Translations under genes and position numbers: made by a program
The notes under the pieces: model-generated
Databases searched by the model: none
The model's input: the letters and a program-made list of their open reading frames with translations, nothing else
What the model was told of the DNA's origin: nothing
Shown here: positions 9,402 through 19,148 of the stretch, piece after piece
Numbering within the stretch: position 1 is the stretch's first letter
Layout: the number at the start of each line of letters is the position of its first letter
From: Candidatus Moranbacteria bacterium RIFOXYA12_FULL_44_15
GTDB taxonomy: Bacteria > Patescibacteriota > Minisyncoccia > Moranbacterales > UBA2206
Direction of reading: 5' to 3'
DNA: 55,739 bases
Assembly: GCA_001784815.1 (NCBI GenBank)
Contig: MFSF01000012.1
Location: 1 to 55,739, forward strand

Positions 9402-9418
9402 GCTATTAGTTGCTAATT

Positions 9419-11014
9419 ATGAAAAAAGAAGAAATTAAAATCCCATCATACGTAATCGAAGTTATTGAGAGCCTGGAAAAGGCGGGTTTTGAGGCGTTTG
9501 TTGTCGGTGGATGCGTGCGGGATATGCTTTTGGGCAAGGAACCCAAGGATTGGGACATTGCCACAAATGCCAAGCCGGAGGAAATTTTAAGAATATTTCC
9601 GGATAGCGTATATGAAAATCAATTTGGGACGGTGGGTGTAAAAATTAAGACCGATGCGAATCTACGAATGAAATGCGAATCTACGAATGACGAGTCGGAA
9701 GGAAAAGAAAAAACTGAGATTGTGGAGGTAACGACGTATCGGATTGAGTCGAAGTATTCGGATAAGAGGCATCCGGATGCGATTAAATTTGCGAAGACCT
9801 TGGAAGAAGATTTGAGTCGGAGGGATTTTAGTATCAACGCTATCGCACTGAAATTTTCAATTTTCAATCCTTCGACTTCGCTCAGGACAAGCTTTAAATT
9901 TTCAAACAATTTTCAATTCAAAAATGCTCAATTGAAGAATACTGATTACGAAATTATCGATCCTTTCGGTGGGCAAAATGATTTGAAAGATAAAATTATC
10001 AGAGCTGTCGGAAAGGCTGATGATAGGTTTAATGAAGATGCTCTTCGTATGATGCGCGCAGTCAGATTTTCTGTACAGTTGGATTTTACGATTGAAGAAA
10101 AAACTTTTGAGGCGATGAAAAAGAACGCGAAAAACTTAAAATATATTTCGCAGGAGCGGATCAAGGATGAGTTGGAAAAAATTATTTTGTCTCCAGCGCC
10201 GGCGCGGGGAATAGAGTTGCTTCATGAAACGGGATTGCTTCAATATATTATTCCGGAAATTGAAGTTGGTTATGGCGTGACGCAGAGCCATCATCACTAC
10301 TACGGTCCCTATAACACGGTTTATAAACATCTGGTGGCATCTTTGGAGAAGTGCCCGTCGGAAAAACTCGAGGTGCGCTTGGCGGCGCTTTTGCATGACA
10401 TTGGCAAACCGAAAGTAAAACGAGGCGCGGGAGAAAACGCGACGTTTTATAATCACGAATATGTCGGCGCGAAAATGGCCGCGCGTATTCTCACGCGGTT
10501 GCGGTTTTCAAAGAATGTCATTGATAAAGTAGAGCTTTTGGTGAAAAGCCATATGTTCTATTATAACGTTGATGAAGTGGGGGAAGCAGGTGTGCGGCGG
10601 GTGATCCGGAAAGTGGGGCTGGAAAATATCAATGATTTGATTGACGTGCGGATCGCCGATCGGTTGGGTTCAGGCGTGCCAAAAGCCGTGCCGTATAAAT
10701 TGCGCCATTTCAAATTTATGGTGGAAAAAGTATCGCACGACGCCGTGTCAGTAAAGCAGCTTAAGATCAACGGCGATGATTTGATGAAAGAATTGAAGCT
10801 AGAGCCGGGACCAAAAATTGGGGCGATATTGGACGTGCTTCTCATGAAAGTTATTGACGAGCCGAAACTTAATACAAAAAAAGATTTGCTGAAAATAGCT
10901 GAAGATTTGAACAAAGAGGACTTTGCTTCTTTAAGAAACCAAGCCAAGCGTAAAATAGAAGAAGAGATCAAAAAAGAAGAAGAATTTATGAAAAAGAAGT
11001 ATTGGGTGGAATAA
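9419..11014 (+). CDS. cca: CCA-adding enzyme / poly(A) polymerase family with HD domain
   Basis: The 531-residue tRNA nucleotidyltransferase has the class II head VVGGCVRDMLLG and DWDIAT (metal-binding D-x-D), the RRDFSINAIAL motif, DPFGGQNDL, EDALRMMRAVRF for base recognition, and a C-terminal HD domain with LAALLHDIGKP. It repairs or builds the tRNA 3' CCA. The ATG at 9419 is preferred; a TTG at 9410 is in frame but weaker. Oddity: two stretches are made of dispersed intergenic repeats read in frame, near residues 79-91 (CGAATCTACGAATG repeat) and 150-158 (PSTSLRTS, from the CTTCGACTTCGCTCAGGA repeat). They fall in loops between conserved motifs, so the enzyme may still work. Confidence 0.9.
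   Translation: MKKEEIKIPSYVIEVIESLEKAGFEAFVVGGCVRDMLLGKEPKDWDIATNAKPEEILRIFPDSVYENQFGTVGVKIKTDANLRMKCESTNDESEGKEKTEIVEVTTYRIESKYSDKRHPDAIKFAKTLEEDLSRRDFSINAIALKFSIFNPSTSLRTSFKFSNNFQFKNAQLKNTDYEIIDPFGGQNDLKDKIIRAVGKADDRFNEDALRMMRAVRFSVQLDFTIEEKTFEAMKKNAKNLKYISQERIKDELEKIILSPAPARGIELLHETGLLQYIIPEIEVGYGVTQSHHHYYGPYNTVYKHLVASLEKCPSEKLEVRLAALLHDIGKPKVKRGAGENATFYNHEYVGAKMAARILTRLRFSKNVIDKVELLVKSHMFYYNVDEVGEAGVRRVIRKVGLENINDLIDVRIADRLGSGVPKAVPYKLRHFKFMVEKVSHDAVSVKQLKINGDDLMKELKLEPGPKIGAILDVLLMKVIDEPKLNTKKDLLKIAEDLNKEDFASLRNQAKRKIEEEIKKEEEFMKKKYWVE
9654..9690 (+). repeat. Two tandem copies of an 18-nt cgaat unit inside cca
   Basis: ATGCGAATCTACGAATGA occurs twice, 19 nt apart (9654-9671, 9673-9690). 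The same words build the hairpin between rpoB and rpoC (25524-25604). Read in frame as part of cca between FGTVGVKI and EVTTYRIE. Confidence 0.75.
9868..9892 (+). repeat. Repeat fragment inside cca (PSTSLRTS-encoding)
   Basis: CCTTCGACTTCGCTCAGGAC matches the right end of the repeat at 9263-9401. It encodes PSTSLRTS in frame, between ALKF and the DPFGG motif. The flanking residues (SIF..., FKFSNNFQFKNAQLKN) look like low-complexity insertion too. Confidence 0.75.
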
Positions 11015-18654: not shown

Positions 18655-18660
18655 CCCGCA

Positions 18661-18749
18661 GCATTTGCTAGCGATATATAGAGTAATTACTCTTCGAAAT
18701 TAGATAAACCATATATTAAGATTACTTATACAATTTCGTGAGCAAATGC
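18661..18749 (+). repeat. Hairpin spacer inside the second tRNA cluster
   Basis: GCATTTGCT (18661-18669) pairs with AGCAAATGC (18741-18749), enclosing the palindrome GAGTAATTACTC (18681-18692). It separates tRNA-Val from the split tRNA and would fold in the precursor transcript. Confidence 0.6.
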
Positions 18750-18777
18750 GGCAGGCCGGGTTAGCTCAGTGGTAGAG

Positions 18778-18892
18778 TCCCGCACCATTTTTTGTGAATT
18801 CTAGCCAGATTAGCTCAGCGGTAGAGCGAAGGACTGAAAATCCTTGCGTGCCCAGTTCGACTCTGGGATCTGGCACAAAAAATGGTGCGGGA
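18778..18892. repeat. 19-bp perfect inverted repeat around tRNA-Phe
   Basis: Left arm 18778-18796 and right arm 18874-18892 are exact inverse complements (TCCCGCACC...TTGTG). The right arm includes the last acceptor base and the discriminator of tRNA-Phe. Perfect pairing over 19 bp places tRNA-Phe at the tip of a long helix. Confidence 0.9.
18804..18875 (+). tRNA. tRNA-Phe(GAA)
   Basis: Acceptor GCCAGAT/ATCTGGC, D-arm GCTC/GAGC, anticodon stem AAGGA/TCCTT with loop CTGAAAA (anticodon GAA), T-arm CCCAG-TTCGACT-CTGGG. A complete, normal tRNA, but embedded in the inverted repeat and inside the split tRNA. Confidence 0.93.
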
Positions 18893-19148
18893 TAAACGCC
18901 GGACCGAAAATTTTACCCCGTCCCAATTCTCAAAATGAAGTTTGGCATATCGAATGTTTAAGCCGAAGGCGATTCCGGGGAAGAGACTAAAGAATCAAGA
19001 GATATTTTTTTCGGAATTGGCGCGGGGCCTTGTGTCCCCGGTTCGATCCCGGGACCCGGCACCAACAAAGAGTTAAGAGTTTATAAAGCTAAAAAGTTTG
19101 TAAAGTTCACTTTATAAACGTGTCGCTTTACAACTTTTAACTTTGATC

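What the first reader, a model, noticed from the sequence alone, without database searches (positions are those of the whole stretch)
18755..19064. tRNA-Phe nested at the tip of a 19-bp perfect helix inside a split tRNA
A tRNA acceptor strand plus D-arm (18755-18778) and a matching T-arm plus acceptor strand with CCA (19037-19064) are 258 bp apart. Between them, a perfect 19-bp inverted repeat encloses an intact tRNA-Phe, followed by about 130 bp with its own pairing (ATTCCG / CGGAAT). The two half-tRNAs pair 7/7 in the acceptor. This would be a tRNA gene hosted in the interior of another tRNA gene. If the outer tRNA is functional it needs an unusual splicing or trimming path; if not, why the perfect helix is preserved needs explanation.
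Basis: partly seen in the sequence, partly recalled or inferred. Interest (0 to 1): 0.85.

Follow-up and report, generated by a model that had tools for sequence, protein, structure and literature searches.

The report
Replacement tRNA nested in broken tRNA
In this Patescibacteria genome the only working phenylalanine tRNA gene sits, between two inverted-repeat arms, inside the broken remains of the older phenylalanine tRNA gene, and the same doll-in-doll arrangement recurs for at least 17 tRNA types in related bacteria, which points to an unrecognised kind of small element that breaks tRNA genes while supplying a replacement.

Summary
Observation confirmed; interpretation only in part. The outer halves (18755-18777, 19028-19064) are letter-identical (60/60 nt) to the single uninterrupted tRNA-Phe of the only other genus member held (G001, same tRNA cluster). 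The outer gene is therefore the resident tRNA-Phe. It is broken by two palindromic insertions; its anticodon arm survives, damaged, between them (18901-18911). Insertion 1 is a 19-bp inverted repeat holding a complete, divergent tRNA-Phe, now the genome's only one. No intron model matches. I read the outer tRNA as a recent pseudogene and the inner one as its replacement.

This is not a one-off. A pattern that did not ask for an outer tRNA (arms CCCGCACC...GGTGCGGG around a T-loop) found 47 tRNA-bearing units, mostly in Patescibacteria, a few in Elusimicrobia records. Most lie inside broken tRNA genes of the same isotype (17 isotypes), in nested order in 43 of 48. One locus is a clean triple doll (Gly in Gly in Gly). 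The reversed-pattern control found none in 380 genomes. I propose a miniature inverted-repeat element with a replacement tRNA as cargo. The enzyme, and how cargo and target come to match, are unknown. I found no description in the papers searched.

The parts
18755..18777 (+). 5' half of the resident (outer) tRNA-Phe: acceptor 5' strand and D-arm
   Evidence: Identical 23/23 to the uninterrupted tRNA-Phe of G001:C23 (L023)
18778..18796 (+). Left arm of insertion 1, TCCCGCACCATTTTTTGTG
   Evidence: 19/19 complementary to 18874-18892; shares TCCCGCACCA with arms of dispersed elements in relatives
18797..18803 (+). 7-nt spacer between left arm and inner tRNA
   Evidence: sequence
18804..18876 (+). 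Inner, complete tRNA-Phe(GAA); the only tRNA-Phe found in the assembly; no encoded CCA
   Evidence: ARAGORN; RF00005 63.3 bits; no other tRNA-Phe in the genome
18874..18892 (+). Right arm of insertion 1, CACAAAAAATGGTGCGGGA; overlaps the tRNA 3' end
18893..18900 (+). TAAACGCC: TAAA tail common after this arm in other copies, plus altered start of the outer anticodon stem
   Evidence: GGTGCGGGRYAAA in 12 of 31 genomes; reversed control 1 hit
18901..18911 (+). Remnant of the outer tRNA-Phe anticodon arm, GGACCGAAAAT (G001: GGACTGAAAAT)
   Evidence: the repeat finder D5
18912..19027 (+). Insertion 2: palindromic repeat TTTACCCCG...GCGCGGGG (arms 18916-18935 / 19008-19027; centre TTAAGCCGAAGGCGATTCCG)
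   Evidence: related copies outside tRNAs in G001, G003, G010, G020, G023, G025, G029 (71-77% over 67 nt or more; a 27-nt match in G003)
19028..19064 (+). 3' part of the outer tRNA-Phe: 3' end of anticodon stem, variable loop, T-arm, acceptor strand, CCA
   Evidence: Identical 37/37 to G001 tRNA-Phe

Best explanation
The outer tRNA is the genus's original tRNA-Phe gene, broken recently by palindromic mobile repeats. The first insertion is a miniature inverted-repeat element whose cargo is a complete tRNA-Phe of another tRNA-Phe lineage. The insertion destroyed the resident gene and supplied its substitute, so the cell stayed viable. The outer halves are now a pseudogene; the inner tRNA is presumably processed normally (5' by RNase P, 3' trimming, CCA added by enzyme) out of the tip of the helix. 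The locus is one member of a recurrent class of inverted-repeat cassettes, each carrying tRNA-X inside a broken tRNA-X, in many Patescibacteria and some Elusimicrobia records. SHOWN: identity of the outer halves with an intact homologue at the same place; two insertions; divergence of the inner tRNA; recurrence, isotype match and nested order; serial nesting. INFERRED: mobility of the tRNA-bearing unit, foreign origin of the inner tRNA (possibly spread by recombination between conserved tRNA halves), selection as the reason for isotype match, and the processing path. UNKNOWN: the enzyme and how the cargo is acquired.
For: Empty-site comparison: G001 (same genus, same Val-Phe-Gly order) has the uninterrupted outer gene, 60/60 nt identical in the two halves. 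The inner tRNA is 81% identical to the outer (47/58) but 93% to G014/G022. It is the only tRNA-Phe among the 38 tRNAs found. Recurrence: 47 tRNA-bearing units among 80 loci from a pattern that did not require an outer tRNA. In the phylum sample, 11 places in 8 of 380 genomes, all 11 with a tRNA, reversed-pattern control 0. Cognate targets: flanks match the inner tRNA better than every other-isotype inner tRNA in 30/48 and exceed 50 shuffles in 38/48; nested order beats swapped order 43 to 4. When flanks are joined, the outer anticodon equals the inner one in 9 of 18 detected, the cases where the break mostly lies outside the anticodon loop; loop breaks scramble the reading. Triple doll: L096, Gly in Gly in Gly, broken at the same position, CCCAAG|CCCCGCACC...GGTGCGGGGCAAG; L255 is a messier Thr example. 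A second case in the same genome: tRNA-Thr in tRNA-Thr on C2. Copies without tRNA exist in intergenic DNA and in the G001 16S rRNA gene.
Against: No transposase is linked: Y1 transposase-like genes occur in 20/31 genomes including this one, but paired CCCGCACC-type arms are not found flanking them. I saw no tRNA-bearing unit clearly outside a tRNA gene, which a freely mobile, merely surviving element should sometimes produce. In three units the inner and outer are 100% identical in the aligned parts (L116, L155, L157), which fits local duplication better than foreign cargo. Ten of 48 units did not exceed the shuffle control, so their outer gene is doubtful or eroded. The named tRNA-bearing examples are all metagenome-assembled genomes, and nothing shows expression.
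Confidence: 0.78

Rival explanations
1. In-place duplication: when the inverted repeat inserted or was copied by strand switching, the resident tRNA was duplicated between its arms; inner and outer then diverged.
For: Three units have inner and outer identical in the aligned parts (L116 57/57, L155 43/43, L157 62/62), and L155 repeats some upstream sequence too. It explains why cargo and target always match.
Against: Here the outer pseudogene is unchanged from G001 (60/60) while the inner differs with paired changes in acceptor and T-stems; a functional copy should not change faster than its dead template. Most units with both halves clear are 77-94% identical, typical of different lineages.
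Confidence: 0.15
2. Tandem tRNA duplication followed by palindrome insertions and deletions that happen to leave an intact copy between two broken ones.
For: Broken tRNA fragments beside intact ones are common in this order (8 of 28 tRNA-Phe loci; the loci were chosen by similarity to the window, so this rate is biased upward).
Against: It does not predict 5' halves upstream and 3' halves downstream with arms snug against the tRNA (43 nested against 4 swapped), nor the exact triple doll of L096.
Confidence: 0.05
3. The outer tRNA is functional and the 250-nt insert is an unusual intron that carries a tRNA.
For: Outer acceptor and T-arm are perfect; group I introns interrupt tRNA-Phe in five related genomes (RF00028, 77-81 bits).
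Against: No intron model matches here. The outer anticodon stem is altered (CGCCGGACCGAAAAT against CAGAGGACTGAAAAT in G001), and the outer is visibly eroded in G003, G016, G038 and G040.
Confidence: 0.02

Closest known systems
Rickettsia-specific palindromic elements (RPE) and other small bacterial mobile repeats
   Same: Short palindromic repeats with terminal inverted repeats, spread through a genome and found inside RNA genes; RPEs lie in the tmRNA and RNase P RNA genes (PMC2229807)
   Different: RPE inserts are described as possibly neutral for the RNA they enter; no RPE is described there as carrying a tRNA or replacing the gene it breaks
Integrative elements at tRNA genes, including tycheposons
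   Same: Use tRNA genes as integration sites (tycheposons bordered by a tRNA, PMC10872708); such elements commonly restore the tRNA they enter (general knowledge)
   Different: Those are kilobases long with a recombinase; these units are roughly 100-150 bp, gene-free, break the tRNA in mid-gene and bring a whole substitute
Group I introns in bacterial tRNA genes
   Same: Interrupt tRNA genes, including tRNA-Phe of close relatives
   Different: No group I core, different site, outer tRNA not restored
REPINs with REP-associated tyrosine transposases
   Same: Pairs of palindromes moved as a unit; related Y1 genes present in the genome
   Different: The arms here do not flank those genes; REPINs are not known to me to carry tRNAs
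Archaeal split, permuted and intron-containing tRNAs
   Same: tRNA gene parts separated on the chromosome (PMC4033280)
   Different: Those are rejoined by a splicing endonuclease; here no joining is indicated

Membership tests
Group I intron (RF00028) | Conserved catalytic core recognised by the covariance model | tested here: not met
   No hit in 18660-19145 at E<=10, none in the genome; five relatives score 77-81 bits
Group I intron (RF00028) | Exons join to a complete tRNA | tested here: not met
   Joining the flanks of insertion 1 gives no tRNA by ARAGORN (WIN); two insertions and an altered anticodon stem
Small palindromic mobile repeat (MITE/REP/RPE-like) | Terminal inverted repeats | tested here: met
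   19-bp perfect arms; arms of 8-20 bp in the 47 units
Small palindromic mobile repeat (MITE/REP/RPE-like) | Dispersed copies in the same or related genomes | tested here: met
   GGTGCGGGRYAAA: 40 hits in 12 of 31 genomes, reversed control 1; many are two-armed palindromes in unrelated sites
Small palindromic mobile repeat (MITE/REP/RPE-like) | Empty site in a relative | tested here: met
   G001 tRNA-Phe uninterrupted, identical halves
Small palindromic mobile repeat (MITE/REP/RPE-like) | Target-site duplication | tested here: inconclusive
   L096 can be read as a 4-bp CAAG duplication or as a CAAG tail; L107 and L147 favour a tail
REPIN/RAYT system | Palindromes flank the cognate RAYT gene | tested here: not met
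   Of 37 Y1-type loci, four hold a single CCCGCACC-type arm and none holds two
Integrative element in a tRNA gene | Encodes a site-specific recombinase | tested here: not met
   The two inserts together are about 250 nt and contain no protein-length gene

The most novel reading that the evidence does not exclude
A categorically new kind of mobile element: gene-free inverted-repeat cassettes that carry a tRNA and enter, preferentially at single-stranded positions of the cloverleaf (junction 25-27, anticodon loop, variable region, T-loop), the tRNA gene of the same isotype, replacing host tRNAs one after another and leaving nested fossils.
Probability: 0.35. Interest if true: 0.92.

Novelty: new variant of a known kind. 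Interest (0 to 1): 0.8.

Why it matters
tRNA genes are essential and often single-copy in these reduced genomes, yet here they appear to be broken and replaced in place by miniature elements, for at least 17 isotypes. That would explain how tRNA genes turn over between lineages, leaves nested fossils in order of age, and raises the testable question of how cargo and target come to match. Annotation tools report only the inner tRNA, so the phenomenon is easy to miss.

Tried and rejected
Group I, group II and tmRNA reading: Rfam at E<=10 gave only the inner tRNA and chance hits. Outer tRNA with an intact anticodon stem CCCGC/GCGGG: dropped once GGACCGAAAAT was recognised as the outer anticodon arm. 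Y1 transposase as the mover: genes present, no linkage to the arms. (order-wide pattern anchored on TAGAG) was set with a gap that even the window fails, so its zero means nothing. One search was a script error. Rebuilding outer tRNAs by joining flanks worked where the break is outside the anticodon loop; elsewhere the joined anticodon is an artefact, and mismatched left/right pairs gave tRNAs in 26 of 172, so that test is weak alone. The 33 of 80 pattern hits without a tRNA lie mostly in GC-rich genomes: chance. Misassembly: judged unlikely because the arms are 8-20 bp and the arrangement recurs in independent genomes, but reads were not available.

Full report
OBSERVATION. The described architecture is present at the stated coordinates: outer tRNA 5' half 18755-18777, a 19-bp perfect inverted repeat 18778-18796 / 18874-18892, an intact tRNA-Phe(GAA) 18804-18876 between the arms, a further palindromic stretch, and a T-arm plus acceptor strand with CCA ending at 19064. 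About 2e-7 perfect 19-bp repeats are expected by chance in 310 nt. The whole strand folds with the inner cloverleaf at the tip of the helix and the outer acceptor paired.

WHAT THE OUTER tRNA IS. The window lies in a 758-kb draft genome of 44 contigs. The same family and order include Candidatus Moranbacteria (contigs of G010, G043 and G050 have the same lengths as contigs of the records PEVT01000036, PFVO01000007 and MFSH01000016). The only other genus member held, G001, has in the same cluster (Val, then Phe, then Gly) one uninterrupted tRNA-Phe whose sequence contains both outer halves of the window letter for letter, 23/23 and 37/37 nt. The outer gene is therefore the resident tRNA-Phe. 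Its anticodon arm is still there at 18901-18911 (GGACCGAAAAT; G001 GGACTGAAAAT), with an altered 5' side, so two insertions broke the gene: 18778-18900 and 18912-19027. The second insertion is a dispersed palindromic repeat with related copies (71-77% identical) at non-tRNA places in relatives.

NOT AN INTRON. Five related genomes do have interrupted tRNA-Phe genes (G006, G015, G020, G025, G078), but with group I introns in the anticodon loop scoring 77-81 bits. The window insert has no such match and the genome has none. In other genomes with similar nesting (G003, G016, G038, G040, G050, G035) the outer copy is variously eroded, as expected for pseudogenes.

THE INNER tRNA. It is the only tRNA-Phe in the assembly (the assembly is 90% complete). 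It is 81% identical to the outer halves over 58 aligned nt but 93% to tRNA-Phe of G014 and G022. Since the dead outer copy has not changed relative to G001, the inner is unlikely to be a diverged copy of it; the simplest reading is a tRNA from another lineage.

A RECURRENT CLASS. The arms share TCCCGCACC / GGTGCGGGA with other palindromes: GGTGCGGGRYAAA occurs 40 times in 12 of 31 related genomes, with one hit for the reversed control. Many copies are palindromes without a tRNA, one of them inside the 16S rRNA gene of G001. Others enclose a tRNA and lie inside a broken tRNA of the same type: Val and Thr in G040, Thr in G010 and G016, Ala in G043 (read by eye). Together with the window these cover 17 isotypes. 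In the phylum sample the strict pattern occurs at 11 places in 8 of 380 genomes, all 11 with a tRNA, and the reversed control never.

COGNATE AND NESTED. For the 48 units, flanks were compared with the inner tRNA: 38 exceed all 50 shuffles and in 30 the cognate tRNA beats every inner tRNA of another isotype. Left flank to 5' half and right flank to 3' half scores better than the swapped order in 43, worse in 4. Joining flanks recovered a tRNA in 18; the top anticodon equals the inner one in 9, mostly the cases whose break lies outside the anticodon loop (false rate with mismatched flanks 26/172). By eye, several of the low scorers also show cognate remnants (for example L138 tRNA-Ser and L167 tRNA-Ile), but this was not scored.

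SERIAL NESTING. L096 (Falkowbacteria) is a clean triple doll of tRNA-Gly: both outer genes are broken after CCCAAG and both inserts run from CCCCGCACC to GGTGCGGGGCAAG; taking the insert out on paper leaves two complete tRNA-Gly sequences. L255 shows a more tangled serial arrangement of tRNA-Thr. The window's own genome has a second nested pair, tRNA-Thr on contig C2.

MECHANISM. Shown: insertion of palindromic units into cognate tRNA genes with an intact tRNA between the arms, repeatedly and serially. Break points cluster at unpaired positions of the cloverleaf (D-stem/anticodon-stem junction, anticodon loop, variable region, T-loop), read by eye. Inferred: a miniature mobile element with tRNA cargo; insertion into a single-copy tRNA gene survives only if the cargo replaces it. 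The cassette could also spread by recombination between conserved tRNA halves, which would explain why in the window the outer ends are native while the middle fragment (4 of 15 nt changed) is not. Unknown: the enzyme. Y1 transposase-like genes are present but their loci do not carry paired arms. The absence of clear tRNA-bearing units outside tRNA genes is not explained by survival alone and leaves targeting or local duplication open; three units with identical inner and outer tRNAs support local duplication in those cases.

NOVELTY. Known relatives are palindromic repeats entering RNA genes (RPE; PMC2229807), integrative elements at tRNA genes (PMC10872708), group I introns and archaeal split tRNAs (PMC4033280). 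Ten literature searches found no description of tRNA-in-tRNA cassettes; the library lacks preprints and most subscription journals, so priority is not proven.

Noticed in passing
L038 276-599, L039 316-640, L040 319-690, L041 309-667, L042 348-650: tRNA-Phe genes of five related genomes carry group I introns (RF00028, 77-81 bits) in the anticodon loop; ARAGORN also reports an intron in tRNA-Thr(GGT) of L053.
   Followed up: partly
L079 around 1500-1590: A palindromic element of roughly 90 nt with the same arms (CCCCGCACCAAATG...CATTTGGTGCGGGG) lies inside the 16S rRNA gene of the sister genome G001.
   Followed up: partly
L266 (G000:C2), reverse strand, about 1140-1310: Second nested tRNA in the same genome: tRNA-Thr(TGT) inside a broken tRNA-Thr, with different arms (CCTGCCCGCC / GGCAGGCGGG).
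   Followed up: partly
window 18655-18755: Another palindrome (CCCGCAGCATTTGC...GCAAATGCGGCAGG) abuts the 5' end of the outer tRNA; G001 has a similar one before its tRNA-Gly.
   Followed up: no
L040 750-1001, L041 725-1001, L042 710-1001: An ORF with an apparent helix-turn-helix start lies just downstream of three intron-bearing tRNA-Phe genes; possibly a homing endonuclease gene, not tested.
   Followed up: no
window 9410-11014: ORF that looks like a CCA-adding enzyme, which the inner tRNA-Phe would need since it has no encoded CCA; judged from sequence only.
   Followed up: no
L065, L067, L082: Palindromic copies in G003 and G013 appear to lie within or beside protein-coding genes; whether they are read in frame was not checked.
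   Followed up: no
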